Shown here piece after piece: positions 39,105-63,195 of a stretch of DNA of 64,000 nt; within the stretch, counting starts at the first letter, position 1, and each line of letters begins with the position of its first letter. Origin of the DNA: Algibacter sp. Its GTDB lineage: Bacteria; Bacteroidota; Bacteroidia; Flavobacteriales; Flavobacteriaceae. The stretch spans positions 1 through 64,000 of the forward strand of contig NZ_JAQWOO010000001.1 in the NCBI RefSeq assembly GCF_029245835.1. The letters are read 5' to 3'. The translations under genes and the position numbers were made by a program. The notes under the pieces were generated by a model. The model saw only the letters and a program-made list of their open reading frames with translations, ran no database searches and was not told where the DNA came from.

Positions 39105-39178
39105 TCCTTCTTAGCTCAGTTGGTTAGAGCATCTGACTGTTAATCAGAGGGTCCTTGGTTCGAGCCCAAGAGAAGGAG
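39105..39178 (+). tRNA. tRNA-Asn (anticodon GTT)
   Basis: TCCTTCT/AGAAGGA acceptor, GCTC..GAGC D-arm, TCTGA CTGTTAA TCAGA anticodon arm, CTTGG TTCGAGC CCAAG T-arm; 74 nt. Confidence 0.97.
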
Positions 39179-39303
39179 CAAAATTAAAGTCCAGCTTATG
39201 AAAATAGGTTGGATTTTTTTGTTTACACCATGCTGTGGCTGTATTTATTGCACTAACTGCATTTTCCAATAAAACTTAATTTATCAACTTTATTAGAAGA
39301 AAA

Positions 39304-39390: not shown

Positions 39391-40596
39391 TTGGTAATGA
39401 AACATCTAACCATGTCCGTTTTGTTCTATCTGAACAAGGCTAAAACTAATCAAAAAGGAGTCTGTCCTCTTTATTGTAGAATCACATTCCTTAAAAAAAG
39501 ACAACAATTCTCAACGGGACATTTTGTGAACCCAATTCATTGGAATTCTAAGACTCAAAAGGTATCGGTAAAAGATGTAAACAGTAATTTCATTAACACT
39601 CAATTATCCTTAATTACACAAAACATTCAGAAGACTTATCTAAAACTGCAATTACAAGAATTTGAATTTAGAGTTAATGATATTGTTAACTTATATTTTG
39701 GTAGAGCTAGCAATAAGGAAGATAACGTCTTGAGTTATTTTAAAAAATACCTTGTTAATATTAAAAACCTAATTGGGAAAAGTATTAAGGAATCAACGTA
39801 TAAAAAATCATATTATGTATACGGTAATGTAGCCTCATTTATAAAACATAAATATAAGGTTGGAGATATCGAGCTACGTAAGCTTAACCTCCAGTTTCTT
39901 TCTGATTTCGAGTATTACCTCAAGACCGAATTAAACCATAAACAAATAACAATTAATAAGGCTATTCAGCGCTTCAGAAAACCTATTAGGATTGCTGTAG
40001 CTGAAGGGTATCTTGATAAAGATCCGTTTGCACTACATAAACCAGGGCGCGTTTTTAAAGAGGTTCTTTTTCTATCCTATGAGGAATTATTGGTATTAGA
40101 AAAGCATTCATTTTCCCAAGTGAGATTGGCAATAGTGAGAGATTTGTTTGTCTTTTGTTGTTACACAGGACTTGCTTACAATGAGATGTCAAATCTTAAC
40201 GCTACGCATATAATAAAAGGGTTTGATGAAGCTCAATGGATTCGTATGACGCGAGCAAAGACATCTCGAGTAATCAATGTTCCCTTGCTTCCCAAAGCCC
40301 AGAAAATCTTATTAAAATATAAAGGTGAGGATGCTATATTACCTAAAATAAGTAACCAAAAAATGAATTCTTATTTAAAGGAAATAGGGGATATAGTAGG
40401 CATTCATATACCATTAACTCATCATATCGCTAGAAAAACATTTGCTTCTTCAGTATTACTTTATCACGAGGTACCCATGGAGATAGTAAGTGAATTACTT
40501 GGGCACTCATCTCTTAAAATAACCCAATCCTATTATGGAAAAATAGTAAATAAGTCTATAAGTCAAGCTATTAACACACTAAAACAAAAATTATGA
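39391..40596 (+). CDS. Tyrosine recombinase/integrase (Bacteroidetes IntDOT-like)
   Basis: N-terminal arm-binding LYCRITFLKKRQQFSTGHFVNPIHWN; C-terminal LTHHIARKTFAS ... LLGHSSLKITQSYYGKI; adjacent to tRNA. Confidence 0.95.
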   Translation: MVMKHLTMSVLFYLNKAKTNQKGVCPLYCRITFLKKRQQFSTGHFVNPIHWNSKTQKVSVKDVNSNFINTQLSLITQNIQKTYLKLQLQEFEFRVNDIVNLYFGRASNKEDNVLSYFKKYLVNIKNLIGKSIKESTYKKSYYVYGNVASFIKHKYKVGDIELRKLNLQFLSDFEYYLKTELNHKQITINKAIQRFRKPIRIAVAEGYLDKDPFALHKPGRVFKEVLFLSYEELLVLEKHSFSQVRLAIVRDLFVFCCYTGLAYNEMSNLNATHIIKGFDEAQWIRMTRAKTSRVINVPLLPKAQKILLKYKGEDAILPKISNQKMNSYLKEIGDIVGIHIPLTHHIARKTFASSVLLYHEVPMEIVSELLGHSSLKITQSYYGKIVNKSISQAINTLKQKL

Positions 40597-42795: not shown

Positions 42796-43425
42796 TTAAC
42801 TATATTTATATAACAAAAAGCTAAAACACAATGCAGCTAACACAATACAAGAAATAATAATAAAAGTCAGTTTTTTCACCTGTGTTTTATTTGTTTCTAT
42901 TTTGGTATTTAGTAATTGAAATTGCTTTAAAACCTCATTGTGATTATTGATTATTAATTTATTTATTTTTATTGATTGGTCTTCTATTTCTTTAGACGTC
43001 ACTTTTGTAAACTCTGTAATATCTGTTTCTAATTTTTCTTTAAGTGCATTTATCTCGGATGCAAAATCTTTAATTTTTACTTCCAATTTTTCTTTTACCG
43101 ATTCTAGAGTCTTATTAGATTCAATAGTATAGTTATTTGCCAAATTTTCAAACTTTTTAGTTTGTTTTTCAACATTGCTATTTAAAGTAGTTAAAGTCTC
43201 ATTTAATGAGTTTTCAATGACCTCGAAATCTTTCTTTTTAGATGTGTAGTCTTCTGTTATACTCTTTTTAAAAAGGGTCACCGACTGAACAAAAGATTCT
43301 ATCGCATCAATCGTTTTTTTTGCATTATTGCTATTTTCAGAAGTGATTTCGTTAATTGACTTTAATCGCTCAAGTTCATTAATAAGTGCTTCAAATTCTT
43401 CTTGTAATTCTATATTTTTTGACAT
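42796..43425 (-). CDS. Coiled-coil protein with C-terminal transmembrane anchor
   Basis: Heptad-rich E/K region ending in KKLTFIIISCIVLAALCFSFLLYKYS; immediately downstream of the helicase. Confidence 0.7.
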   Translation of the reverse strand: MSKNIELQEEFEALINELERLKSINEITSENSNNAKKTIDAIESFVQSVTLFKKSITEDYTSKKKDFEVIENSLNETLTTLNSNVEKQTKKFENLANNYTIESNKTLESVKEKLEVKIKDFASEINALKEKLETDITEFTKVTSKEIEDQSIKINKLIINNHNEVLKQFQLLNTKIETNKTQVKKLTFIIISCIVLAALCFSFLLYKYS

Positions 43426-46400: not shown

Positions 46401-47178
46401 TTTCTGTGATAACTACCTTTCCTAATTTTCGATACTTAATTTGACGGTCTGTTAATATTTTAAAATTTAATGTCGAATTTTCACCTTTTGATAGTGGCAC
46501 TATTTGTATGGCATCAGTATTCTCTTTGTTAAGAGAGATTGTTACCATATTGTTTTGCTCGTTTGTTTTAAGTAAGGGTATTTTAATTTCATCTTTTTCA
46601 CTTAAATCATTCAGCGCTGTAAATAATTCATTTAAATCGTCTTGTAATAAGCTCGACTCTTCTTCTGATAATCCTATAATTTTAAAATTGGTTTCTACTG
46701 GATTCGCCATTAACACCAACAACATGGTTTTTTGAAATTGATTAAATACGATTCCTTTTCTTATACATTTAAAAATATTGTAAGTAGAGTGTCCTAAATC
46801 GCTAACCTGGTTATCATCCAGAAAAGCAAATCCTTCCAAAACAAGAGCCAAATCAGATGGATAAAAGTTGTCGCCAATACTTAATTGCGCCTTAATTTCT
46901 GACTTTGAAAAATTAAATGGCTCATGATTGGGAAAATATGTATCTAATAAATATGAACTTAATTTTAATGAAGCTCGTGTAGCATCACCACGATTTAAAA
47001 TATTCCAAGCTGTTTTTAGTAAAGGCGGCACTTCACTTTGATTAATATACTCTGGTGCATTTGTAATAGAACAAGAGCTATTATCATTATAAAATTTCAA
47101 TAAAACATTATAACCAAAACTATGACGAAGCAATTGATTTAATTCGTCTATATAATATGCGCCTTTTAAAATAATCAT
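43459..47178 (-). CDS. RecQ-like superfamily 2 DNA helicase, 1239 aa with long N- and C-terminal extensions
   Basis: FRPGQEAIINRALIGQDVIGLLPTGGGKSLTFQ, VIDEAHCVSEWGHDFRHVYLNL, GLTATAS, YQEAGRAGRDG. Confidence 0.9.
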   Translation of the reverse strand: MIILKGAYYIDELNQLLRHSFGYNVLLKFYNDNSSCSITNAPEYINQSEVPPLLKTAWNILNRGDATRASLKLSSYLLDTYFPNHEPFNFSKSEIKAQLSIGDNFYPSDLALVLEGFAFLDDNQVSDLGHSTYNIFKCIRKGIVFNQFQKTMLLVLMANPVETNFKIIGLSEEESSLLQDDLNELFTALNDLSEKDEIKIPLLKTNEQNNMVTISLNKENTDAIQIVPLSKGENSTLNFKILTDRQIKYRKLGKVVITEKKMSNGERSEVHNFEYSTKKQEEGLEYLLQNIFRKVKFRPGQEAIINRALIGQDVIGLLPTGGGKSLTFQTCALLHPGVTIVVDPINSLMKDQYDKLIDNGISNASYINSFNSQEERENRMQKLVESNYLILFVSPERFQMENFRQSLSSCKDLNVYFSYAVIDEAHCVSEWGHDFRHVYLNLAENLKRHCSSKTGKLTIFGLTATASFDVLADVQRELDLKEEAIISLPAEAIDREELNFNIIPISIEVPEGLEYYDRERRLGDSKYPVIKQFLRDIPAQISTLERKYGYINEVPDFYGQTNDEYKNAGVIFCPTKSTKLPNGVMHLTYGRELSKKKIGNKLVPNYAGNGLNEIPFLEVRTFFGGGNDNTIKNNAIKSQAEESFKNQDDFIKNKANLMIATKAFGMGIDKPNIRYSIHYSFPNSVESFYQEAGRAGRDGNPSLCSIIYHPIDIETNYDFYKNAFRGIKRERLIIDELLEEIQYEDGFYVNVLKQQIRDKFPEVKSVNLYKDRYIYINGPWHDNPAQRIKIGLLDLQRNLRSYDNATQNFDFNKAKEILEFSRQRLNEACEGQDYLAWFKTKSADGIRTLIESGANERYSLKIGFTNGIVSKMNEVIKSIGYDDFEERIIRAAYNFSTDENDFPESIRHHYYDFQMNTYGFAKNEFDPNPDTLQFLKDNFSRIRNTQDTQRAVYRLNILGIIDDYVIDYVGHLIEVRFTSKSNKEYKSNFKAYLRRYLGIETTKAWLNKIKKVRENSILTQVLYVLIEFIESEISDKRKRSIDYMKELCEVHLNEGEDEFRDRMVRYFTSKYARQDYLPADTEKGTKENCAIVKKYIGFIDNPPDGLGGQIDNAKHLRGACDNLRINMVENASIDLLTAFSLLALELKEEDTIESANEKPLVEKAIELYRSGFKRMLRIDPWQEVKYLITLFNTKTLDFNSEIEPLMNELSSELLVNRTHFKLKELIDKISALEEEESDK

Positions 47179-49934: not shown

Positions 49935-52900
49935 TTACTTATATTTCAATATGGCTACTTTCATACATTCTTCTATCAAATGGTCAATCTTTTTCCAGTT
50001 AGTATCTAAATCAAATTTTCTTAAAAGTTCGTATAGGGCATCTCCCAATTCAATATTTATTTTTCCTGTAATATCATTGTTCTTATGCCATTCTATAATC
50101 TTATTTCCATTTAAATAGATATAAGCTTTAACTGTGTTATCTATAGCTAAACTGACTTCAATATGAAATGGTGTTTTTAATAAACTAGAATCCTCATAAA
50201 CCGATTTACTAAAATTATAAAACGCTAATGCTGCATCATTGTTTGCTAATTCTTCAGGAGCATCATCAGACCGACCATGTAAAAATCTATCTTCATGCTC
50301 TTTTGCTCTTTTCAAGAATTCAGCTTCAGTAATTCGTTTTAAGTAGTACTCTTCAATGGTCTCTTTTATTAAATCTGCCAGTTTTTTATAGTATACTGGG
50401 TCTTCTTGCATCTTCACATTTATAGCCTTAATGGTTCGGCTTGATATGTGGTCTGCCTGAGCAGCTTTGCCAGTAATCTTTTCAATCTCTGCCTCTCGTT
50501 CTTCCTTATCAAAAATATTAACCAGCTCAGTAACTTTCATGATTTCTCCCTCTGTAGAAATATGCTTATTAATAAGCTTCTGTATTTGTGGCTCATACTC
50601 CTTATAAGATAAGTCATCGTTATATCGCCTTTTTACATCAACTCGTAATTTTAAAAAGAATAACGCATCCTTCTTATACATGTTTATTTTCTTCTCAGGG
50701 GTATTATTCACAAAGTCTACCGAAGATAAAGCCATCTTTAAAAGTCTAGCAAAATGACTTAGTTTTTCATAAAAATTATTCCTAATATCTTCTGGAGATA
50801 GTAATTCTTCATAAGCTGTAGGTTCTAAATTCTTGTCTTTTAGAGTCTTGAATATATCCCAAAGTTCAGAATGTGCTTGAGGCAGTTTTTTAACCTCCTC
50901 ATTAAGATTGGTCAATGTACCTTCTAACTCAGATTCATCAAAGTCCGCTAATCCAGAGTAGGTACTTAAAGCACTATCTAAATTTTCTAAATTCCCGTAG
51001 TAATCAATGATATAGCCATAATCTTTCCCGGGGAATACACGATTTACTCTGGCGACTGCTTGCAGCAAAGTATGTTCCTTTAAAGACCTACATAAATATA
51101 AAACAGTATTGTTTGGTGCATCAAAACCTGTCAATAGTTTGGCGACAACAATTAATATTTCTGGATGCTCTCTTTTTTTGAACTGAGTAATAACACTTTT
51201 CTCAAATCGTTTCAAGTCACCATATTTATCAATCATAGCATTGAAATAAGTATCCTCTCTTTCCTTTTCTTCATTTACATTATAAAAACCATCTTCGGTG
51301 CCTTCTCGCTGGTCAGATTGGGTAACAATGACTTCGGAAGAAACCATGCCAATATCTTTCAGAATTTCATGGTATAATAATGCGGTCTTAATACTCGGTG
51401 CTACTAACTGAGCTTTAGGCTTATACTTATCACTTTCTGTTTGAAAGAAGCTTCTATAGTGTTCTGAAATATCCCATGCTCTAGCATAAATAACCTTCTC
51501 TGTTTTATTCAGCTCATTAATGGTATTGAATTTCCTTTTCAAATTAGCTTTACCGTAATCTGAAAGAGGTTCTGAAAGCTTATCAAAATACCTGTTTATA
51601 GGGTCTTCATCAACCGTTATTAAGTTGTGTCTTCCCTCATAAAGTAAAGGCACAACCGCTCCATCTTCAACAGCATCTTTAACGGTATAAGGAAGCCCTA
51701 TATAGCCTCCAAACTTGTTGGCGGTACTTCTTTCCTTTTTCATTAAAGGAGTTCCTGTAAAAGCTAAAAAACAAGCATTAGGAAATACTCGCTGCATGCT
51801 CACATTAAAAGTTCCATACTGGGTTCGATGCCCTTCGTCAATCATCACAAATATATTTGGAGATAAGAAAGGTTGTTTGCATTGTTTTACAGCTGCTTCA
51901 AACTTATTTATAATGGTTGTTATTATAGCATCACTTTTATCTAATAAAAGCTCTGATAGGTGAGAACCTGTTTTCGCTTGCTTAACTTCTTTTTGACATT
52001 TTTTAAAGGTGTCTGAAATCTGGTCATCTAAATCAATCCTATCTGTAACCAATAAAATTTTTGGATTTGAAATTTCTGGACTCGAAGCAATCATTTGAGC
52101 AAGCATAACCATTGTAAGTGATTTTCCACTTCCTTGCGTGTGCCAAATAACACCGCCTTGTCGCTTCCCTGTATTATCAAAATGCGTAACTCGTTTTAAG
52201 GTGTCTTTTACCGCAAAATATTGCTGGTATCTTGCTACCTTTTTTATACCCTCATCATATAATGTATAGTTTCTAATAATGTCTATTATGCGGTCTGGTC
52301 TGCATAAGCTATATAGTAGCTCATCTTGTTTGGTTAGAGGTCGTTCTTCTTGCTCCAATCCATCAAAATAACGTCTCACATAATTGAATCCAAAAGTCCG
52401 TTCCGCAAAAAATACATCCTTAACAGCTTCTTTTAAGGGTTCGTTTTTTAAAACTTTTAATTCATTCCAATAATTAGACTCAGCATCTTTATTGGCAAAT
52501 TGTTCTTTCCATTTTGCCCAAAATTCTTTGCTGGTTCCTGTGGTTGCATAACCACCATCATTTGTGGCAATACTCATTAATAAATTAGAATAGATATATA
52601 GTGACCTAATCCCTTTTTTACTGAAATTTCTAATGTGTTGCTCTATTGCTAATTCTGTTGGTGATTTTGTGCCTTTCAAAGAAGGGCTTTTACATTCAAT
52701 AATTACAGTAGGAATTCCGTTAATAAATAAAACTATATCTGGTCTATATGTGTCTGTTCTTCCTGTTCGTAATACACTGTATTCTTCGGTTACATGGAAA
52801 ACATTATTGCTTGGGTTTTGCCAATCAATATATTGCAACGTATGGCTTTTTTTGTCACCATCAATACTTTGCTCCATGGCTTTGCCTAATGTGATTAGGT

Positions 52901-53195
52901 CATAAAAAGCTGCATTTGCATTTAAAAAACCTTCTTCTATTGGCAGTTCTTTTAAGCTTCTTATAGCAATAGTAATATTTGATTCTGAAAACTCATAGGC
53001 TTTCCCTTTTCTTTGTATGCTATTAATCTTTTTGAGCTGTGTTTTAAGAACATTTTCAAATAGTACTTGAGATTTTTTACCTCCTCGCCATTCTAAAGCT
53101 TGCTCTGGAGACACATAGTTGTATCCCATGTTTATTAGCAACTGAATTGCTGGAATTTGCGAAATATGGTCTTCTAAAAATGATGGAGTGTTCAT
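49935..53195 (-). CDS. hsdR: Type I restriction endonuclease subunit R
   Basis: Nuclease PDIVLFINGIPTVIIECKSP, Walker A HTQGSGKSLTMVML, DEGHRTQYG, FTGTPLMKKE, ARVNRVFPGKDYGYIIDY. Confidence 0.97.
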   Translation of the reverse strand: MNTPSFLEDHISQIPAIQLLINMGYNYVSPEQALEWRGGKKSQVLFENVLKTQLKKINSIQRKGKAYEFSESNITIAIRSLKELPIEEGFLNANAAFYDLITLGKAMEQSIDGDKKSHTLQYIDWQNPSNNVFHVTEEYSVLRTGRTDTYRPDIVLFINGIPTVIIECKSPSLKGTKSPTELAIEQHIRNFSKKGIRSLYIYSNLLMSIATNDGGYATTGTSKEFWAKWKEQFANKDAESNYWNELKVLKNEPLKEAVKDVFFAERTFGFNYVRRYFDGLEQEERPLTKQDELLYSLCRPDRIIDIIRNYTLYDEGIKKVARYQQYFAVKDTLKRVTHFDNTGKRQGGVIWHTQGSGKSLTMVMLAQMIASSPEISNPKILLVTDRIDLDDQISDTFKKCQKEVKQAKTGSHLSELLLDKSDAIITTIINKFEAAVKQCKQPFLSPNIFVMIDEGHRTQYGTFNVSMQRVFPNACFLAFTGTPLMKKERSTANKFGGYIGLPYTVKDAVEDGAVVPLLYEGRHNLITVDEDPINRYFDKLSEPLSDYGKANLKRKFNTINELNKTEKVIYARAWDISEHYRSFFQTESDKYKPKAQLVAPSIKTALLYHEILKDIGMVSSEVIVTQSDQREGTEDGFYNVNEEKEREDTYFNAMIDKYGDLKRFEKSVITQFKKREHPEILIVVAKLLTGFDAPNNTVLYLCRSLKEHTLLQAVARVNRVFPGKDYGYIIDYYGNLENLDSALSTYSGLADFDESELEGTLTNLNEEVKKLPQAHSELWDIFKTLKDKNLEPTAYEELLSPEDIRNNFYEKLSHFARLLKMALSSVDFVNNTPEKKINMYKKDALFFLKLRVDVKRRYNDDLSYKEYEPQIQKLINKHISTEGEIMKVTELVNIFDKEEREAEIEKITGKAAQADHISSRTIKAINVKMQEDPVYYKKLADLIKETIEEYYLKRITEAEFLKRAKEHEDRFLHGRSDDAPEELANNDAALAFYNFSKSVYEDSSLLKTPFHIEVSLAIDNTVKAYIYLNGNKIIEWHKNNDITGKINIELGDALYELLRKFDLDTNWKKIDHLIEECMKVAILKYK

Positions 53196-56100
53196 TTATT
53201 TGATTGTATTTAAGTAATTAAACTCATTCTTAAAACTCAAGTTGCTCTCTTCTTTTCCAATTCTTTGACGAGACTTATAAATTAGTCGCTCTAGAGGGTC
53301 TCGATGGCTAGAGTTTAATATTCTTACTGAATCTAAACTATCTATCGTTTCTTGAATAATTTTATTTCCTTTCAAATGCATTTGGTCATGAACAGAAATG
53401 TTCTTTACGTCATAAAGCTTTACATATCTTTTCTTGTCTTTTGAAATGTTAAGCTGAATAATATCAACATCTTTAGCTAATGTTAACAAAATTAACTTTG
53501 CATCCAAAAACTTACTATTGCTATATTGATAATCAAATCTATGGTCTAATAATGTTCTGATTTTAATTTTATTTACACATGTATTATCATATGCCTGAAT
53601 TAGAAATTTTTTCTTATCCTCTTCAAATATTGAAATACTATTTTCAATAATATTACTATTGAAATATTGTTTTGATAACATATATTTTCCACCTACTAAA
53701 AAATACAGAAATGCAATTTCTTTAGTTTTTCCATTAGAATTTAAAAACTGAATGTTTTTAGATTCCGACTTTTGGTTATTATAAAAATCAAATTTAATAG
53801 CCTGTTGACCGTAAGAAACACTTGGTTCTTCAACTACTTGATTACTTAGTATATTTTCTTTTCTTTTAAAAAATAAGAACAAGTCATTACCTTTTAGAAT
53901 CCTCGTTTCATTTCCTTGCCTTTGATAAAACTCTTCTCGCAAAGCTACAGGTATGTCATACTCAGGAATACTAATTTCTAGGTATTCTGTGTCATTTAAT
54001 TTTGAAAAATTGAATTCAATTTGACCATTTACATCCTTGTTAAAGTTTTCTACAATTAATTTTCTTATATATCTTTCATAAGTGTCATGATTACCATCTT
54101 TTAGAATTTTAAATTCTTCTTCTAATCCAATAGGGAAACCATAATCATTTACTCCCAAAAACAAACTTCCTCCATCCGCATTTAAAAAACCTGCAATTGT
54201 TTTCATAATAATAAATCCTTGTTCCTTTTTATTAATTTTGCTCGTCTCAGCAAAGAAAAAGACAGATGTTTTAAATTCTATTGTATTGGTTTCTCTTCCA
54301 AGTGATGCTTCTTCAGAAAGAATATCATCTTCATTTACTTCAGAACTGCTGTCCGTGATATCTATAATTGGCTCACTCATATCATCAGACACTGTTTGAT
54401 ATATTATTTTTTTTGTTGAAGAAAGAATAGTGCTATCTGTTATACCGCTTTTTACAAGAAGGTTATGAGCTAAGATTAAATCATTGAGTTTTTTATTTAG
54501 GGGGCTATAGTCTTCATTTGAAACTGAGATTAGTTGAGAAATCGAATCTACATCATTGAAGCAACTAAGTAACTTATAGCTTTCATTTATTTGAGATAAA
54601 GATTGAAACTTTTCTAACGTTAAATCTGTTATGAAATCAAATTGGCTAAATGTATTTTTATAGTCTAGATTTTTAAAGTCATCTATAGCCTCAATGTTTT
54701 TTATTAACGAATCGAAATAATAAGACCTCGAACTTTTTATAATTGAACAAATAAGCTTTATAACATAGTATAATTCAAGTTTTGATTCCTTTTTATCTTC
54801 AAGAAAGGCTAAACTTTCCAAGCTCATTATTAAATCTTCAATTAGCTTCTTATTTCCATCTAAGCCATCACTTGAATCCGTTTCTAAATTACTATTTTGC
54901 TCTATTATTGATGATTCGAGAAGGTTTCTAAACAGAGTCTTCGAATTAAGAATTATATTTTTTTGAGTATTTAGTTCAACATTGTACGTGTTATATTCAT
55001 CAGAATAGTTTATTATTTTGGCATTATAAACATCTCCGATTTTATAATCTTCACTGTGATTATCAAATAAATGACCAGAGCAGCCTTTTTCAGTTAAAAC
55101 AAAAATAGAATTTCTTGTAATCTCTACAATTAGAACGTTTACGTCATCACCGTCTTCATGTAAATTCTTAGATATCTCGTTTACTTGGTTAATCAATTGA
55201 AACTGGAGTCCTTTTTTATCAATGTCTTTTACTTCCGCAACAAAAATATCGCCAGGATTTATAATGCCTTTTAATCCATCAAGAAAATTTTTTGTTAAAC
55301 TACTTTTTGCTAGAATGCCCTCACCTTTTGAGGTGTTTTCTATGATTCTAACAAAAATTACCGAATCATTATCTTTATAGTAATTTTTAGCCTCTACCCT
55401 TACTAAATCACCAACATGAACATTAGAAATTGTTTTTGAATGTTTAACACTAACATCGGAGTAATATTCTGCCCAATTATAAGCATACTCCTTGATATTG
55501 TTTACATTTGATAATCTTATATCGAGGTTTAATGTAGATGATATGTTAATATTGTTGTTTACGTAACTCGAAATATTAGTTATACCGTATAAGTTGCTAT
55601 TCACTTTAAAGTGTTTATAGTTAATAAGATGTAAACCATTTTTTGATTGACATATTAAACCTTCATTGACATACACTTTTTTATAATTTTTAGAGTCTTT
55701 TGGAGGGCATATAATTTTAATATCATCCCTTCCTAGATATTTTTCTATTTTAAACTCATCTATTTCATCAGTATCTAATTTTAAGTAATTAGATTTAGTT
55801 ATACACTCAATTGCCTTAACTATTAAGGCTCTTTTATGGTTTACATTTGAATCTAGGTAGCTATAGTATCTAAACAAAGCTGATGAGTTTAATATACTTC
55901 CTTGAATATTTTCAGTCTTGTTATCAAGAGTAATTTGAAGAAGAATAAATTGAATAATTTGGACTATTCCATTTCTATCAACCTCATTCATTTGATAATT
56001 TCTTTGCTTGAGTCTTAGGTTTATCTCTTTCTTTACTTTTTTAATTTTGAAGCTAAGAAGGTTATTAAAGAATTTATAGTCATAAATTTCAAGACTACCT

Positions 56101-57566
56101 TTCTTTATTAGAAAATTAACAATAGAAATAATTTCGTCTGTTGATTTATTTATTAAGTCGTCTGAAAACAATAGTAATTCTCTAAAAATATTAATCGAAT
56201 TAGTTCTTAGGTTTTGACTTATCTTAATTTTTTTTGAAATATTTTCTATATAATCTATGTGAGTGTTTGAAGTTATTTTGTTCAATGCTTCAATCTTATA
56301 CTCAATTCTTTTTAATTCGCCTTCAGCCATTGTTATAATGCGTTCTTGCTTATCTGAACCAAAGTTTGTTAAATAATCTGAGCCTTCAAGAATCCATTCC
56401 TCTAACTTTTTTGTTAGCTTTAAAACATCTACAGCCGTATGATATTCTTTTTCATATATTAAATTTTTTAAATGACTTTGGGTTATGAAGTTCAAATATG
56501 AAAATATCCAAGTGTTTTCGTTAGAATGATATAAATCGAACAGGTTATTAAAAGCTGATGATTCATATTTTTCTAGTTTAAGTTCTTCTTCTAAATCATA
56601 GAAGTAAGGTTCGATTTTTTCAAAATATCCTATTGACTTAAATACGTTTTCTACATTATAAAATTTGCCTAGTGGGTCTGACGTAGACTTTAGAATCAAA
56701 TTGCCATAATCATCAAATTTTCTTAAAAAATATTCCTGTTCTGTTTCAATTATGTTATTGTTAGAACCTTCTAAAAAGTAATTTAAGTATATACGGTGAG
56801 TAAAACCATATTTGTCTTCAAGACGATAATAATCTGTATGTTCGTCTTTCTCTAATGATTTAACGGTAAATTTATAATTATTACCAACATTATAAAACTT
56901 ACTAAGGAGTGCCTTTTTATCTTGTCGGAGATATAATTTGTAGCCCACAATTTTAAAAACGATACAACGAAGGGTAGAACCAATCATTTCTTTACTTTGA
57001 AAATCGTAAGTTCTTACAGTTGTTTTATAACCATCGTAATCTAAATTGAAAATAGAAAATTCTTCATCAATTGCTTCAAGAGCGGTAATTTTGAAATCAT
57101 ATGATTTGTTGATTTCGAATAAATTTTTTGGGTCTATTTTTGTTGATAAATCAGGTTTCGTATCCGACTCGAAAAAAACATGATTTTTATCTAAATCGAA
57201 ATTTTTAACAGTTATTTCAATCTTATTATTTACAATACTATTTTCATAAAATAAAGGAATAAACAATTGGATATTCTCGTTATTTTCTATAACAAATCCT
57301 TTTTCTTTTTTTTCAATAATATCAAAGAGATAGGCTTCAGATTCCTTATAATCATTCAAAACACTATATTGAAAAATAACTGAGCCATCCATTCTAAATG
57401 AACTTAAAAATAAAATCACATATTCCCCTTCTGGTATATAAGCTTTTTTAAATGGATACTCTTGATTGTTAATTTCATCCCTGACAATTGTTGATTTTTC
57501 ATTTTGTCTTACCACTAAATATTTTCTGTGTTGTTTGGCAACAGGGTTTCTAGTTTGTGATATCAT
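53196..57566 (-). CDS. Giant (1456 aa) protein with S1/OB-like segments and AlbA_2 (Schlafen-type) domain
   Basis: GRETNTIEFKTSVFF...MKTIAGFLNADGGSLFLGVNDYGFPIGLEEEF is AlbA_2-like; upstream S1-like VHVGDLVRVEAKNYY, NPGDIFVAEVKDIDKKGLQFQL, YKIGDVYNAKIINYSDEYNTYNVEL. Confidence 0.75.
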   Translation of the reverse strand: MISQTRNPVAKQHRKYLVVRQNEKSTIVRDEINNQEYPFKKAYIPEGEYVILFLSSFRMDGSVIFQYSVLNDYKESEAYLFDIIEKKEKGFVIENNENIQLFIPLFYENSIVNNKIEITVKNFDLDKNHVFFESDTKPDLSTKIDPKNLFEINKSYDFKITALEAIDEEFSIFNLDYDGYKTTVRTYDFQSKEMIGSTLRCIVFKIVGYKLYLRQDKKALLSKFYNVGNNYKFTVKSLEKDEHTDYYRLEDKYGFTHRIYLNYFLEGSNNNIIETEQEYFLRKFDDYGNLILKSTSDPLGKFYNVENVFKSIGYFEKIEPYFYDLEEELKLEKYESSAFNNLFDLYHSNENTWIFSYLNFITQSHLKNLIYEKEYHTAVDVLKLTKKLEEWILEGSDYLTNFGSDKQERIITMAEGELKRIEYKIEALNKITSNTHIDYIENISKKIKISQNLRTNSINIFRELLLFSDDLINKSTDEIISIVNFLIKKGSLEIYDYKFFNNLLSFKIKKVKKEINLRLKQRNYQMNEVDRNGIVQIIQFILLQITLDNKTENIQGSILNSSALFRYYSYLDSNVNHKRALIVKAIECITKSNYLKLDTDEIDEFKIEKYLGRDDIKIICPPKDSKNYKKVYVNEGLICQSKNGLHLINYKHFKVNSNLYGITNISSYVNNNINISSTLNLDIRLSNVNNIKEYAYNWAEYYSDVSVKHSKTISNVHVGDLVRVEAKNYYKDNDSVIFVRIIENTSKGEGILAKSSLTKNFLDGLKGIINPGDIFVAEVKDIDKKGLQFQLINQVNEISKNLHEDGDDVNVLIVEITRNSIFVLTEKGCSGHLFDNHSEDYKIGDVYNAKIINYSDEYNTYNVELNTQKNIILNSKTLFRNLLESSIIEQNSNLETDSSDGLDGNKKLIEDLIMSLESLAFLEDKKESKLELYYVIKLICSIIKSSRSYYFDSLIKNIEAIDDFKNLDYKNTFSQFDFITDLTLEKFQSLSQINESYKLLSCFNDVDSISQLISVSNEDYSPLNKKLNDLILAHNLLVKSGITDSTILSSTKKIIYQTVSDDMSEPIIDITDSSSEVNEDDILSEEASLGRETNTIEFKTSVFFFAETSKINKKEQGFIIMKTIAGFLNADGGSLFLGVNDYGFPIGLEEEFKILKDGNHDTYERYIRKLIVENFNKDVNGQIEFNFSKLNDTEYLEISIPEYDIPVALREEFYQRQGNETRILKGNDLFLFFKRKENILSNQVVEEPSVSYGQQAIKFDFYNNQKSESKNIQFLNSNGKTKEIAFLYFLVGGKYMLSKQYFNSNIIENSISIFEEDKKKFLIQAYDNTCVNKIKIRTLLDHRFDYQYSNSKFLDAKLILLTLAKDVDIIQLNISKDKKRYVKLYDVKNISVHDQMHLKGNKIIQETIDSLDSVRILNSSHRDPLERLIYKSRQRIGKEESNLSFKNEFNYLNTIK

Positions 57567-57675: not shown

Positions 57676-59310
57676 TTAAGAAATAATTTCATACTTTCTC
57701 CACCTATTATCTCCAGCACCCTTTATTACAGCTGATTCAATCATTTTATCTAATTGTCTTTTTATTTTCTTTTTATTAATTTCTTTACCAATCCTTTCAT
57801 GGATGTCTCCAATAGAACAGGGTTGATATACTTTTAAATCTTCTAAAATCAATTGCTCTAATCTATGCGTTTCTATATTCTTTAAATCAGTCTTTCCTTT
57901 GAAATCTAATTGTTTTAATAGTTTGGGGTTTACATAATATTCTGTTGCTTTAGTTTTTCCTTTACTGAGTATTATATCATGTTTTAGTAGACCGTTTATC
58001 CAATATTTTAAAGCATCATCATTTCTAATACTTAGTTTCTTACTTAAAACAATACTAGAAATAGATGTATTTTGAGCAATTAAGCCAAGAGCTATAATTT
58101 CTTTTTGTTTTAAAGGAAAATCTTCATTTACCTTACTCATTAATCTAACAACTTCCTTATTGATAATATTCTTTTTTATTGTTACAACAACTCTATCGTC
58201 CCATTCTTCTACAATAGGTTCTGGTTTTCCATTAAAAAGAAGTAACTCATATACTTTGTCATATCCACTTCCTTCTTTTTCCATGAGTTGCAAATCGTAG
58301 AATACTTTGGCTAGATGAGTGTTTCTATAAACAGATTTACTTATAATATTATTTGGGGTAACTCCTAAGGGTAATAGACCTGGAGAGTGAATTTCTAATC
58401 TATCACTAAACAAGTTAATAAATATGTCACCACGCATTGAATAAACCTGATGAACCAAAGCGTTAGCAATTAGTTCTCTAATAATTTCAATATCATAATT
58501 GGGAATATTTTTTCTGAATAAACCATCAGAAATTTCAATAGATTCTCTCCAATCTGAAAGACTAATAATCTCAGTCAATAGTTCCTTGGGATTTAACCTA
58601 AAATCATCCCATACAATTTTATTAACCTTATTTTCATTTTCATCATATTTTATAAATTGTACTGAAGGTGCGTAATGTAATTGGGCTCTGTCATTGCGCT
58701 TGCCTAACCATAAAACACCAAGGTTGGTTAACACGCCTTCTTTTGAGAGAAAATAGAAATCGCATAGTTCTTCAATGGACATTTCTTTTACAAAGTTGCT
58801 AACTCTATTAGAGGTTTTAACGTCTTTAATAAATTCATTGTATTTTACAATGTCAACTTCATTTAGCTGCAATTTGCGTACTATCTTTTCTTCCCAATTA
58901 AATGCTTGTTTCTCTGCTGCTACTCGTGTTAGCTCATCAGGCATAATTGGTTTACAGTCATCTGCAACTCTTATATAGTATTTGCCATCTGTAGTACTGG
59001 CAATAACTTGTTGACTTCTAAAAATTTGTAGTTTAATATACTCTCCTCCATTACTTGCAGTCTCTTTAGATGCAGAAATAGCTACTCCAACAGTTTTTTG
59101 TGGTATCGTTTTATTTACTTTCTCTACAAGAGCATCGGTGATTTTTTGAGAAGCATTGGGGTTATCCATATCATTCTCTATACCTATAGCTATAGTGCCG
59201 CCTTTGCCATTTGCAAAGCAAACACAATCTTTAGCTAATTCGCTCCAATCAGCAGATTTCCCTTGTATTAGTTTTAAAGATTTCTTGTCAAACTCGCTAT
59301 TTTCAATCAT
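57676..59310 (-). CDS. AlbA_2 + HATPase_c_4 + C-terminal winged-helix protein
   Basis: KSADWSELAKDCVCFANGKGGTIAIGIEND; RELIANALVHQVYSMRGDIFINLFSDRLEIHSPGLLP; C-terminal wHTH stretches. Confidence 0.9.
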   Translation of the reverse strand: MIENSEFDKKSLKLIQGKSADWSELAKDCVCFANGKGGTIAIGIENDMDNPNASQKITDALVEKVNKTIPQKTVGVAISASKETASNGGEYIKLQIFRSQQVIASTTDGKYYIRVADDCKPIMPDELTRVAAEKQAFNWEEKIVRKLQLNEVDIVKYNEFIKDVKTSNRVSNFVKEMSIEELCDFYFLSKEGVLTNLGVLWLGKRNDRAQLHYAPSVQFIKYDENENKVNKIVWDDFRLNPKELLTEIISLSDWRESIEISDGLFRKNIPNYDIEIIRELIANALVHQVYSMRGDIFINLFSDRLEIHSPGLLPLGVTPNNIISKSVYRNTHLAKVFYDLQLMEKEGSGYDKVYELLLFNGKPEPIVEEWDDRVVVTIKKNIINKEVVRLMSKVNEDFPLKQKEIIALGLIAQNTSISSIVLSKKLSIRNDDALKYWINGLLKHDIILSKGKTKATEYYVNPKLLKQLDFKGKTDLKNIETHRLEQLILEDLKVYQPCSIGDIHERIGKEINKKKIKRQLDKMIESAVIKGAGDNRWRKYEIIS

Positions 59311-59321
59311 GATATTGATGT

Positions 59322-59615
59322 TTAATTCAAATTTTGTTCAGCAGCAACGGCAGCTTCATATGCCAATTTATTTTGGTATTTAGATAAAGCTGTTATTCTG
59401 CCTGTTCCTTGTTCACCTATAGCTCTATCAAACTCAAAAGTGACTTTTAGGAATACTTCATCTTGCAAACGCATGTTTACTGTAACATCTTTCAGCTTTT
59501 CAATTTGCCCTTTGGTTTTATCAAAACATGTTATATACAACTGTTGCATATCCTTTTCTAACTCTGCTTTTTGAGCTGGTGTTAAACTGTTTATTAATTC
59601 TAATACTTTTTTCAT
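59322..59615 (-). CDS. Small hypothetical protein (97 aa)
   Basis: Overlaps the upstream ORF by 4 nt, within the hsd operon. Confidence 0.65.
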   Translation of the reverse strand: MKKVLELINSLTPAQKAELEKDMQQLYITCFDKTKGQIEKLKDVTVNMRLQDEVFLKVTFEFDRAIGEQGTGRITALSKYQNKLAYEAAVAAEQNLN

Positions 59616-59920
59616 CCTGTAAAACCACTTTTAGTTTTCACATGCAAGAATGTTTCAAACTGAATCCTGTTATGGTTCGTTGTCTTACTCGTCCCTTCTG
59701 CTTTAGCTCCTAAATCAAACACTGAAGCAATTTTAATCTTACCACCTCCATTTATTTTATCCTCATCACTAGATGTGATTGCCACATCAAAATGAATTTT
59801 TTTGTATGCATCTTGTATGCCATCACTTTTTTCGTATTTTTCCTTAATATGATTATGCCCTTCAACTAACCCGTCAGCAATTTGCTTTATGGTTTCTGAT
59901 ATAAATTCTTTTAACTCCAT
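59612..59920 (-). CDS. Small hypothetical protein (102 aa), possibly trypco2-like
   Basis: MELKEFISETIKQIADGL...IHFDVAITSSDEDKINGGGKIKIASVFDLGAKAEG...NHNRIQFETFL: amphipathic helix plus beta-rich domain. Confidence 0.6.
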   Translation of the reverse strand: MELKEFISETIKQIADGLVEGHNHIKEKYEKSDGIQDAYKKIHFDVAITSSDEDKINGGGKIKIASVFDLGAKAEGTSKTTNHNRIQFETFLHVKTKSGFTG

Positions 59921-59931
59921 ACTATTATTTT

Positions 59932-61131
59932 TTAAATTTTAACCCTTATTTTACCTGTTAATAGCTGTTGCATCAAGCCTTTCTTTTGGGCTTTTAGTTG
60001 CTCTAAATAGCTTAGTTGATATTCTATTTCTTGGTCTGTAAATTTAATAACTGAAGCTATCGTCTTTTGTTCATCTACTGATGGATATAAAATTTTCATA
60101 GTTGAAAATTCTTTATAGCTTATTTGTTTCCCATCTCTAATTCCGTAAATCATAGAATTAAGCTTGTTAATAAAGCTTTGGGTTTTCATATATTCTCTAT
60201 AAAACAATTTAGAAATTGGCTTTTTCTCTCTTAAAACAGTGTAAGCTGGACTTACAAGACCTTCATAGTTAGAATATTCAATTCCACCTTGAAAAGACCT
60301 TAAACTGATGACAAAATCACCGACATTTAATCTTTTGTAATTTGATAATGAATTTTTATCATACTTAATATCTATACCTGTTTCACTTCTTGGTATTACT
60401 CCTTTGTCTTGAGTAGCTGAAAGAACCTCCAAAGTGCCATCATGATTCTTATCAGTATGGTTTTTAAATAATTCTTCAGCTTTCAACAACTGCCAATTAT
60501 CAATAAAACCTTTCAAACGAGTTTTACCAGTTAATAACTGTTGCATTAATCCTTTTTTACGGAGCTCTAATTTCTCAATAAAAGTTTGTGTTTTTTTGAT
60601 AGTTTTATCCCAATCGGATAAAATAGAAGCTATTTTTTCTTGTTCCTTTATAGGTGGATAAAGGATTGGGCAATTTAAAACTTCTTCTTTTCTCAAATTG
60701 GTTTGCTTAACTCCATCATCAAATTTTAAATAATACTTATTTCTATTAATAGAATAGAACAAAAACTTATAATTTATTTTTTTTGCTTTAATTGCACCAA
60801 TCCTTTGATTTAATGAATAGTGGTTGTTTTTATCGACTAAAAAGCATTTCGCAATAGCTCTACCGTTTGGAACATCACTCATTACAATAGTGATTTCATT
60901 TTCGTATAATGGACTTAAATTTTGTTTAATATGTTTCCTGACTTCTCCTTCAGTTGAAACAAACCTAGAGTTAACTAAAACAAATCCACCTTCCTCATCA
61001 ATTATCATTTCATGCCCTTTGCCATTACGAAATTCGCATACATCATTCAGTTTTTTTAAATCCCAATCATTTGGAATCCATCCAATTTTGGTTTTTTTAT
61101 AACCAACTTTATGTTCTTCTATCATCTCCAT
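59932..61131 (-). CDS. hsdS: Type I restriction-modification specificity subunit S (two TRDs)
   Basis: Two half repeats, each ending in LxxxKKGLMQQLLTGK; KEQEKIASILSDWD / DEQKTIASVIKFTD. Confidence 0.95.
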   Translation of the reverse strand: MEMIEEHKVGYKKTKIGWIPNDWDLKKLNDVCEFRNGKGHEMIIDEEGGFVLVNSRFVSTEGEVRKHIKQNLSPLYENEITIVMSDVPNGRAIAKCFLVDKNNHYSLNQRIGAIKAKKINYKFLFYSINRNKYYLKFDDGVKQTNLRKEEVLNCPILYPPIKEQEKIASILSDWDKTIKKTQTFIEKLELRKKGLMQQLLTGKTRLKGFIDNWQLLKAEELFKNHTDKNHDGTLEVLSATQDKGVIPRSETGIDIKYDKNSLSNYKRLNVGDFVISLRSFQGGIEYSNYEGLVSPAYTVLREKKPISKLFYREYMKTQSFINKLNSMIYGIRDGKQISYKEFSTMKILYPSVDEQKTIASVIKFTDQEIEYQLSYLEQLKAQKKGLMQQLLTGKIRVKI

Positions 61132-61132
61132 A

Positions 61133-62617
61133 TTAAAATCCTAAAGCTGTTAAATGTTGTTCCAGTTTTTGCTCCACTTCTTCAATCTGTTGTTTTATAG
61201 CTTTAATTTCTTCTTGAGTGGCTTTAATATCAACAGGCTCCTCTTCTTCAAAGGTATCTACATAACGAGGGATGTTTAGATTGTAATCATTCTCTATTAT
61301 CTCTTCCAGTTTAGCAATATAACTGTATTTATCAACGGTTTCCCAGTTTTTATAGGTAGTAAAAATTTTATCAATGTTGGTATCACTTAACTTATTTTGG
61401 TTTTTAGCATTGTCAAACTCGTTACTGGCATCAATAAATAAAACTTCTGTATTATCGCCTTTGTTCTTATCAAACACTAAAATGGTTGCAGGAATTCCTG
61501 TCCCAAAAAACAAGTTAGCAGGTAATCCTATAACAGCTTTTAATAGGTTTTCATCAATAAGCTGTTTGCGTATTTTACCTTCAGAACTTCCTCTAAATAG
61601 TACGCCATGAGGCAATACAACTCCAGCTTTTCCATGTTCATTTAGCGTTTCAATCATATGGGTTATAAAAGCATAGTCTCCTTTGCTTTTAGGCGGAATA
61701 CCTCTATGGAAACGATTATATCGGTCTGCACTAGCATTATCTGCTCCCCATTTATCTAATGAAAATGGTGGATTAGCAACTACCACATCAAACTTCATTA
61801 AGGCATCATTTTCTTTTAGTAAAGGGTTATTAAGCGTATCTCCCCATTCTATATGTGCATTATCCATTTCGTGTAAGAACATGTTCATACGTGCCAATGC
61901 CCAAGTACTACCATTTAATTCCTGACCATTTAGAGCTACGTTTTTACTACCAATTTCATCAGCTACTTTTAATAATAAAGAACCACTTCCACATGTGGGG
62001 TCACATACACGGTCTCCCTCTTTTGGCTCCACTAGTTTAGCTAACAAAGTAGATACTTGAGAAGGTGTGTAGAACTCTCCAGCTTTCTTACCAGCATCGG
62101 AGGCGAAATTTGCTATAAGGTATTCGTAGCTATCCCCAATAATGTCATTACCTTCAAGATTAGAGGGTCTTAAATCCAATACTTCAAAATCTGTTAATAG
62201 ATGTTTCAATCTCCTATTACGGTCTTTAGTTTGTCCTAAGTTAGGCTCTGAATTGTAATCTATATTACGGAAAACCTTTTCCAGCTTAGAACGGTTGGCA
62301 TCTTCTATATTTTCTAGTGAAATATTGATGAGTTCTCCTAAATTATCGGCATTCCTGTTTTCGTATAAATGCTCAAAAGAACTGTCTTCAGGTATTTTAA
62401 AACGTTCATGTTTCATGGCACGTTCTACACGTTCAATGTCGCCGTTATATTTATCCATATAATCGGCTCTTTTTTCTTTATTTACATCAGAGATGTATTT
62501 TATAAAGAGCATGGTTAATATGTAATCTTTATACTGGGTGGCATCTATGGTGCCTCTAAAGGTATCACACGCTTTCCATACTTGATTATTTATTTCTTGT
62601 TGTGTTAATTTTTTCAT
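61133..62617 (-). CDS. hsdM: Type I restriction-modification N6-adenine methyltransferase subunit M
   Basis: DPTCGSGSLLLKV (motif I), VVANPPFSLDKWG (motif IV), GEFYTPSQVSTLLAKLV. Confidence 0.98.
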   Translation of the reverse strand: MKKLTQQEINNQVWKACDTFRGTIDATQYKDYILTMLFIKYISDVNKEKRADYMDKYNGDIERVERAMKHERFKIPEDSSFEHLYENRNADNLGELINISLENIEDANRSKLEKVFRNIDYNSEPNLGQTKDRNRRLKHLLTDFEVLDLRPSNLEGNDIIGDSYEYLIANFASDAGKKAGEFYTPSQVSTLLAKLVEPKEGDRVCDPTCGSGSLLLKVADEIGSKNVALNGQELNGSTWALARMNMFLHEMDNAHIEWGDTLNNPLLKENDALMKFDVVVANPPFSLDKWGADNASADRYNRFHRGIPPKSKGDYAFITHMIETLNEHGKAGVVLPHGVLFRGSSEGKIRKQLIDENLLKAVIGLPANLFFGTGIPATILVFDKNKGDNTEVLFIDASNEFDNAKNQNKLSDTNIDKIFTTYKNWETVDKYSYIAKLEEIIENDYNLNIPRYVDTFEEEEPVDIKATQEEIKAIKQQIEEVEQKLEQHLTALGF

Positions 62618-63195
62618 GACATTAATATTTTTTTACTCATTAGTTTATTTATAATTCCTTGTTTAAGAGCTGTTCTCTTTTCTAATAAATCTTGTGTTAA
62701 TCTTAAGTCCTCATCCAAAAGCTCTATAAAGTCTACTATCTTTTTTTGTTCCTCCAGAGAAGGAATGTCAACTGACACTTCCTCCAGTTCTCTTTTAGGA
62801 ATAGATGTAATAGTAGCTCCAGCTCCAATTAGCTTAAGGTTATACTGTATTTTTTCTGAATTGAGATATTGTGCCAAATAAGTACCTAAGACTTTTGAAG
62901 GTTTTGTTCTAATGATATAAAACAAAGAGGAGGGGATAGCTTTACCAAAATCAGGATTGTAAGCCCATGCAAAAGTACGATGACCTTTACCAGCTAAAAT
63001 AACATCATTGGGTTGCAACAGGAATTTATCATTTTTACCATCTAACTCAATAAAGCTTTCTTCAAACTTAGTTGGTTTGTAAAGCTTATCAAAATGACCA
63101 GCATGTAAGTACTTTATGCTCCCTGTTTCTTGGGGTTTGTCATACGAACCAAACTGAATTTCAGCAATATTTGCGAGTTTTTGAATCATAAACAT
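62614..63195 (-). CDS. Half-size HsdS-like specificity subunit (single TRD)
   Basis: 193 aa; SLEEQKKIVDFIELLDEDLRLTQDLLEKRTALKQGIINKLM; ATGA overlap with hsdM. Confidence 0.85.
   Translation of the reverse strand: MFMIQKLANIAEIQFGSYDKPQETGSIKYLHAGHFDKLYKPTKFEESFIELDGKNDKFLLQPNDVILAGKGHRTFAWAYNPDFGKAIPSSLFYIIRTKPSKVLGTYLAQYLNSEKIQYNLKLIGAGATITSIPKRELEEVSVDIPSLEEQKKIVDFIELLDEDLRLTQDLLEKRTALKQGIINKLMSKKILMS

What the first reader, a model, noticed from the sequence alone, without database searches (positions are those of the whole stretch)
53196..57566. Unusual domain architecture: several S1/OB-like modules joined to a C-proximal AlbA_2 domain
Seen: repeated segments such as VHVGDLVRVEAKNYY, NPGDIFVAEVKDIDKKGLQFQL and YKIGDVYNAKIINYSDEYNTYNVEL look like S1-type beta-barrels, followed by GRETNTIEFKTSVFF...IAGFLNADGGSLFLGV, with a further ~250-aa C-terminal region I cannot assign. 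The ESLxxEFK-type acidic motif (ETNTIEFK) is kept. An RNA-binding array plus a Schlafen-type core suggests an RNA-acting enzyme.
Basis: partly seen in the sequence, partly recalled or inferred. Interest (0 to 1): 0.75.

Follow-up and report, generated by a model that had tools for sequence, protein, structure and literature searches.

The report
Giant Schlafen-type protein inside restriction operon
A very large, previously undescribed bacterial protein that joins RNA-binding barrels to a Schlafen-type nuclease domain sits inside a DNA-restriction operon, in the slot where other bacteria keep back-up suicide RNases, so it is probably a second line of defence against phages.

Summary
The 1456-aa ORF (53196-57566, minus) has an SLFN_AlbA_2 domain (res 1092-1224, E 1e-13) and predicted S1/OB barrels. 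The unassigned C-terminus resembles the GyrA/ParC beta-pinwheel. The triad E1092/E1097/D1141 is kept (33/33, 33/33, 27/33 homologues).

The gene lies between hsdS and hsdR of a type I restriction-modification operon, directly abutting hsdR, in a ~29-kb island inserted at tRNA-Asn. In related operons the same hsdS-hsdR slot holds different cargo: Fic, TIR/SLOG, HEPN-like DUF3644, other AlbA_2 proteins, or this family. prrC, the tRNase of EcoprrI, is likewise embedded in an hsd operon. HsdR-AlbA_2 fusions exist.

Best reading: a rare, uncharacterised Bacteroidota family of giant Schlafen-type RNases; this branch is a PrrC-like back-up effector of type I restriction. The architecture is well supported. 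RNase activity and control by HsdR are inferred, not shown. Most homologues elsewhere are not RM-linked. Verdict: new variant of a known kind.

The parts
53196..57566 (-). Target gene, 1456 aa: OB barrels, helical region, two S1 barrels, helical region, AlbA_2, GyrA-CTD-like beta-pinwheel
57366..57533 (-). N-terminal OB-like barrel, residues 12-67 (five strands); the N-terminal 150 aa is occupied in few homologues
   Evidence: (strands, pLDDT 74-90)
56922..57104 (-). OB/S1-like barrel, residues 155-215
   Evidence: Foldseek bS1 E 1.1e-4 for the N-terminal half
56685..56879 (-). OB-like barrel, residues 230-294
55734..56654 (-). all-helical region, residues 305-611, repeat-like; no family assigned
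   Evidence: only weak PCI-domain matches
55197..55406 (-). S1-type barrel A, residues 721-790
54960..55145 (-). S1-type barrel B, residues 808-869
53895..54293 (-). SLFN_AlbA_2 domain, residues 1092-1224; E1092, E1097 and K1099 invariant in 33/33, D1141 in 27/33
   Evidence: Foldseek 3lmm, SAMD9 tRNase 9o0d, SLFN14/11/13
53277..53720 (-). C-terminal beta domain, residues 1283-1430, resembling GyrA/ParC C-terminal beta-pinwheel blades
   Evidence: 1wp5 E 3.3e-4; hhalign E 8.6e-4, best of 12 pairs
49935..53195 (-). hsdR, type I restriction subunit; starts at the base next to the target's stop codon
49227..49931 (-). YgjP-like metallopeptidase, constant last gene of this hsd operon family
57676..59310 (-). 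second Schlafen-type gene: AlbA_2 + HATPase_c_4, also in the slot
59322..59615 (-). 97-aa small protein, slot cargo (82% identical copy in G512)
59612..59920 (-). 102-aa small protein, below-cutoff resemblance to Trypco2
   Evidence: E 0.17
59932..61131 (-). hsdS, specificity subunit
61133..62617 (-). hsdM, N6 methyltransferase
62614..63195 (-). short hsdS-like gene (193 aa), first gene of the operon
39148..39179 (+). attL: last 32 bp of tRNA-Asn, repeated exactly at contig C72 68579-68610 (outside the window)
   Evidence: empty site in G436
39391..40596 (+). tyrosine integrase of the island

Best explanation
The gene encodes a giant Schlafen-type endoribonuclease. At least five OB/S1 barrels would bind RNA, a single AlbA_2 domain (probably acting as a dimer) carries the E-E-D metal site, and a GyrA-CTD-like beta-pinwheel could contact DNA or a partner. 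In this branch of the family it is a back-up effector of the type I restriction system. It is encoded in the hsdS-hsdR interval and coupled to hsdR. It would stay silent while the Hsd complex works. When a phage blocks or overwhelms restriction it would cleave tRNA or other translation RNA, stopping growth, in the manner of PrrC in EcoprrI. Shown by sequence or prediction: architecture, conserved acidic residues, operon position, interchangeable slot cargo, HsdR-AlbA_2 fusions elsewhere, mobile island. Inferred: RNase activity, substrate, silencing and trigger.
For: AlbA_2 with E1092/E1097/K1099 invariant in 33/33 and D1141 in 27/33; SLFN13 E205/E210/D248 are required for RNase activity (PMC5862951). 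Foldseek to the SAMD9 tRNase domain and SLFN14/11/13. S1/OB barrels. Target abuts hsdR in the window (0 nt), overlaps it by 4 nt in G408, and lies 4 nt away in Empedobacter L042; these three form one clade (91/77). The hsdS-[slot]-hsdR-ygjP frame is kept in related operons while slot cargo changes: Fic, TIR + SLOG, DUF3644, AlbA_2-HATPase, DUF3800 pairs. G512, with HsdR 91% identical, lacks the target; G408, HsdR 90% identical, has a 45% identical one. HsdR-AlbA_2 fusions in G085 (within an hsdM-hsdS operon) and G361, and GmrSD-AlbA_2 and DUF499-AlbA_2 fusions. Precedent: prrC embedded in the EcoprrI operon and silenced by it (PMC3874165, PMC2610378). Schlafen RNases reported as back-up effectors in BREX loci (PMC12839542).
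Against: No activity data. Only 3 of 34 long homologues are RM-linked; others lie beside housekeeping or other defence genes. D1141 is N in 6/33. The acidic motif also occurs in AlbA_2 proteins whose nuclease activity is unproven. Models cover two halves separately and inter-domain placement is unreliable (pTM 0.36 and 0.52). The pinwheel match is modest. A second AlbA_2 gene stands next to it, so the effector role could be that gene's.
Confidence: 0.5

Rival explanations
1. It is a stand-alone Schlafen-type defence RNase that senses infection itself (for example phage RNA or translation status through its S1/OB array). Its place in the hsd operon only gives co-expression and co-transfer, with no control by HsdR.
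For: Most family members have no RM neighbours; one has an AIPR gene 53 bp upstream (L039) and two have a Mokosh-like helicase 8-60 bp upstream (L057, L061). The two S1 barrels and the 150-330 OB region are kept in most long members.
Against: Tight coupling to hsdR in all three RM-linked members; HsdR-AlbA_2 fusions elsewhere.
Confidence: 0.27
2. The AlbA_2 domain does not cut. The protein is a nucleic-acid-binding regulator or structural factor (RNA through S1/OB, DNA through the pinwheel) that modulates the restriction complex or gene expression.
For: Single AlbA_2 lobe only; the best AlbA_2 PDB match is DIP2311, an uncharacterised structural-genomics protein; D1141 is N in 6/33.
Against: E1092, E1097 and K1099 invariant in 33 divergent sequences, many only 16-20% identical to the target, as expected for a catalytic site.
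Confidence: 0.15
3. Housekeeping RNA-metabolism factor of Bacteroidota, with no role in defence.
For: Many Bacteroidales copies sit alone beside housekeeping genes such as a class I tRNA synthetase, recQ or transporters.
Against: Very patchy: long form in 2 of 396 Bacteroidota genomes and 2 of 400 genomes of the window's family; on plasmids and in a tRNA-Asn island.
Confidence: 0.08

Closest known systems
PrrC / EcoprrI (latent anticodon nuclease embedded in a type Ic hsd operon), and RloC
   Same: RNase-type cargo encoded inside a type I RM operon; here in the hsdS-hsdR interval and coupled to hsdR; PrrC is silenced by the RM enzyme and released on phage attack (PMC3874165, PMC2610378)
   Different: No ABC-type ATPase and no Arg-Glu-His nuclease triad; instead AlbA_2 with E-E-D and a large OB/S1 array. 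Silencing by Hsd is not shown here.
Schlafen (SLFN11/13/14) core RNases
   Same: AlbA_2-type fold and the E...E...D acidic triad
   Different: One lobe, not the two-lobed pseudo-dimer; no SLFN helicase; S1/OB barrels and pinwheel instead
SAMD9/SAMD9L
   Same: AlbA_2-type tRNase domain plus an OB-fold in one large protein (PMC5445408, PMC12331169; Foldseek 9o0d)
   Different: No SIR2, P-loop NTPase or SAM domain found here; several barrels, all N-terminal to AlbA_2 rather than one at the C-terminus
Prokaryotic AlbA_2-HATPase(-wHTH) proteins, called Schlafen-family RNases and back-up effectors in BREX loci
   Same: AlbA_2 in defence operons; one stands next to the target (57676-59310) (PMC12839542)
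   Different: Target has no HATPase or wHTH hit; it is about three times larger
Ribosomal protein bS1 / CvfB
   Same: tandem S1/OB barrels
   Different: barrels interrupted by helical regions and joined to AlbA_2
GyrA/ParC C-terminal beta-pinwheel
   Same: fold of the last ~150 aa by Foldseek and by profile
   Different: only part of a full pinwheel is matched; no Pfam DNA_gyraseA_C hit; DNA wrapping untested

Membership tests
SLFN_AlbA_2 (PF04326) | profile match over the curated cut-off | tested here: met
   52 bits against 25.3; 31/31 aligned members match
SLFN_AlbA_2 (PF04326) | three-carboxylate triad as in SLFN13 (E205/E210/D248) | tested here: met
   E1092, E1097, D1141 present; 33/33, 33/33, 27/33 in the family
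Schlafen (SLFN) proteins proper | two-lobed pseudo-dimeric SLFN core | tested here: not met
   a single AlbA_2 stretch in Pfam and in the model
Schlafen (SLFN) proteins proper | RNase activity on tRNA/rRNA | not testable with these tools
   needs biochemistry
S1/OB-fold nucleic-acid-binding proteins | five-stranded OB barrels with S1-type similarity | tested here: met
   Foldseek bS1 1.5e-7 and 1.1e-4; hhalign 0.007; no Pfam S1 hit
SAMD9 family | AlbA_2 - SIR2 - P-loop NTPase - TPR - OB order | tested here: not met
   no SIR2 or P-loop match; OB barrels precede AlbA_2
PrrC | ABC ATPase domain and Arg-Glu-His nuclease triad | tested here: not met
   no ATPase family at E <= 1
PrrC-like mode of action | RNase-type cargo encoded within a type I hsd operon | tested here: met
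   hsdM-hsdS-[slot with target]-hsdR
PrrC-like mode of action | silenced by the Hsd complex, released by anti-restriction factors | not testable with these tools
   needs genetics
GyrA/ParC CTD-like pinwheel | beta-pinwheel blades | tested here: inconclusive
   Foldseek 1wp5 E 3.3e-4, TMt 0.34; hhalign E 8.6e-4; no Pfam hit
catalogued defence systems (PADLOC) | target matches a model | tested here: not met
   no match at E <= 0.1

The most novel reading that the evidence does not exclude
A new class of restriction-guarding RNase: HsdR or the Hsd complex directly holds a giant S1-AlbA_2-pinwheel ribonuclease. The pinwheel reads the DNA state or the translocating complex, and the S1 array targets ribosomes or tRNA, so inhibition of DNA restriction is converted into translation arrest. 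It would have evolved independently of PrrC.
Probability: 0.25. Interest if true: 0.8.

Novelty: new variant of a known kind. Interest (0 to 1): 0.6.

Why it matters
RNases that guard restriction systems are best known from PrrC. If Schlafen-type RNases fill the same role, that role has evolved more than once, and the AlbA_2 fold links bacterial restriction-coupled suicide to the animal antiviral proteins SLFN11/13 and SAMD9. The hsdS-hsdR slot of this operon family is also a place to find further effectors, since most relatives examined carry different cargo there. The family is absent from the defence catalogue searched.

Tried and rejected
Full SLFN core: rejected, one lobe only. SAMD9 member: rejected, no SIR2 or NTPase. 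RM linkage as a rule of the whole family: rejected, 3 of 34 and one clade. Phage-borne gene: no full-length match in 50,697 phage records or the IMG/VR scan; partial AlbA_2 matches only. Foldseek against viral structures only repeated the S1 and AlbA_2 folds. PDB sequence search beyond SLFN proteins gave nothing usable. Laying the whole genome in the Python box was not available. Two paper searches returned nothing relevant. [quoted passage not shown] Whole-protein folding was not possible (1200-aa limit), so two overlapping halves were predicted; relative domain placement is not interpreted.
Full report
Observation. The ORF at 53196-57566 (minus) encodes 1456 aa without interruption. Pfam finds only SLFN_AlbA_2, residues 1092-1224, E 1.2e-13. 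No PADLOC or NCBIfam model matches. The best PDB sequence relative is human SLFN12, weakly (E 0.024); a profile of 31 homologues finds SLFN5 and SLFN11 (2e-6, 3e-4).

Family. Full-length relatives were found in G408 (45% identity over the whole length), Algoriphagus (27%), Segatella plasmids (~24% over the C-terminal third) and, by one scan of 85,462 species genomes, in about 30 further Bacteroidota contigs plus one MAG labelled Clostridium. 33 long proteins align. A short form (~530-590 aa) keeps only one OB-like region, AlbA_2 and the C-terminal domain, so the long form looks like the short form with ~800 aa between OB and AlbA_2. The long form is rare: 2 of 396 sampled Bacteroidota genomes and 2 of 400 in the window's family.

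Active site. E1092 and E1097 (spacing of five, as in SLFN13 E205/E210) and K1099 are invariant in 33/33; D1141 is D in 27/33 and N in 6. In SLFN13, E205A and E210A are completely inactive (PMC5862951). The SAMD9 tRNase domain also uses acidic residues (among them E196) and K198 (PMC12331169).

Fold. AlphaFold of residues 600-1456 and 1-715, each with ~30 homologues, gives five-stranded barrels at 12-67, 155-215, 230-294, 721-790 and 808-869; helical regions at 305-611 and 903-1060; AlbA_2; and a C-terminal beta domain at 1283-1430. Residues 73-140 are unresolved. Foldseek on the C-terminal half: bS1 1.5e-7, 3go5 1.2e-5, S1 D3-D4 4.9e-5, DIP2311 (AlbA_2) 4e-5, SAMD9 tRNase 2.8e-3, SLFN14/11/13 from 5.5e-3 to 1.4e-2, and topo IV/GyrA C-terminal domains from 3.3e-4. 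On the N-terminal half: bS1 1.1e-4. The tool does not print which query residues match, so the assignment of the gyrase hits to the C-terminus was checked by profile comparison: the C-terminal profile against GyrA gives E 8.6e-4, the 712-880 profile against ribosomal S1 gives E 0.007, and the other ten pairings give 0.1 or worse. These are single-comparison values with low HH probabilities and count as corroboration only. The same C-terminal domain lies near the end of a 1795-aa SF1 helicase plus MTES_1575 nuclease in G107, so it is a module shared between proteins.

Genomic context. The operon reads short hsdS, hsdM, hsdS, 102 aa, 97 aa, AlbA_2-HATPase, target, hsdR, ygjP. It lies in a ~29.4-kb island: the last 32 bp of tRNA-Asn (39148-39179) recur exactly at contig position 68579-68610, and a tyrosine integrase lies next to the tRNA. 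A same-genus genome, G436, has the tRNA followed directly by sequence 93% identical over 44 bp to the island's right flank, which shows the empty site.

The slot. HsdR relatives at E <= 1e-100 occur in 10 of 201 genomes of the family. Regions of seven were fetched and read together with the window, G408 and Empedobacter; hsdR and ygjP are constant and the hsdS-hsdR interval varies: window (two small genes, AlbA_2-HATPase, target), G408 (DUF3800, 171 aa, target), Empedobacter L042 (target; upstream part missing), G512 (97 aa, DUF3800, 179 aa), G546 (335 aa, Fic), G463 (DUF3644, AlbA_2-HATPase), G439 (DUF3800, 178 aa), G485 (770 aa), G434 (173 aa, 202 aa; contig ends) and G445 (TIR, SLOG and others). 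G512 has HsdR 91% and HsdM 92% identical to the window but no target; G408 has HsdR 90% but target 45%. The target is thus exchangeable or fast-evolving cargo on a stable hsd backbone. The three RM-linked targets form a clade (91/77).

Fusions. AlbA_2 is fused to the C-terminus of HsdR in G085 (1147 aa, inside an hsdM-hsdS-hsdR operon, with an AlbA_2-STAND gene next to it) and in G361, to GmrSD_N in G393, and to DUF499 in G050. Domain fusion is independent support that AlbA_2 works with restriction machinery.

Mechanism. PrrC is embedded in the EcoprrI operon, held inactive by the type I enzyme and released when T4 disables it (PMC3874165, PMC2610378). RloC-type genes occur as inserts in Campylobacter hsd loci (PMC2610378). 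Schlafen RNases are reported as widespread back-up effectors in BREX loci (PMC12839542). The target combines these: a cargo slot in a restriction operon, Schlafen-type catalytic residues and an RNA-binding array. The most likely mechanism is therefore a latent translation-blocking RNase released when restriction is blocked (0.5). RNase activity, substrate, silencing and trigger are inferred. The main rival is the same RNase acting on its own sensing (0.27).

Limits. Most family members are not RM-linked; two sit just downstream of a Mokosh-like helicase and one downstream of an AIPR gene, but many stand beside housekeeping genes. No experiment exists. The field's key preprint could not be read. 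Literature absence was judged only in the open library searched.

Noticed in passing
window 39148-39179 and contig C72 68579-68610: A ~29.4-kb integrative island at tRNA-Asn with exact 32-bp att repeats; the empty site is seen in same-genus genome G436. G647 has a second 23-bp tRNA remnant ~370 bp downstream, suggesting repeated insertion there.
   Followed up: yes
window 43459-47178 with 42796-43425: A 1239-aa DEAD helicase matching DpdF (PADLOC E 1e-86) with a 209-aa neighbour weakly matching LmuB: a possible second defence system in the island.
   Followed up: no
contig C72 63496-65667 and 66784-68259 (partly outside the window): A 723-aa ORF with an NTPase-like start (AKPGTGKTTF) and a 491-aa ORF between the hsd operon and attR, both uncharacterised here.
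   Followed up: no
window 57676-59310: The neighbouring AlbA_2-HATPase protein appears to lack the canonical ExxxxEFK motif at its N-terminus (MIENSEFDKKS), so it may be catalytically altered.
   Followed up: no
L197 7204-10647 and 10710-13226 (G085); L196 2655-5822 (G361): HsdR subunits with a C-terminal AlbA_2 domain; in G085 followed by an AlbA_2-STAND gene.
   Followed up: partly
L084 352-5739 (G107): 1795-aa SF1 helicase + MTES_1575 nuclease carrying the target's C-terminal domain followed by a GreA/GreB C-terminal domain.
   Followed up: partly
L129, L132 and L082: A recurrent DUF3800 gene plus a ~175-aa partner in the hsdS-hsdR slot, probably a further slot module.
   Followed up: no
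L039 9908-15481: A family member of 1857 aa with a ~550-aa C-terminal extension, directly downstream of an AIPR abortive-infection gene.
   Followed up: no
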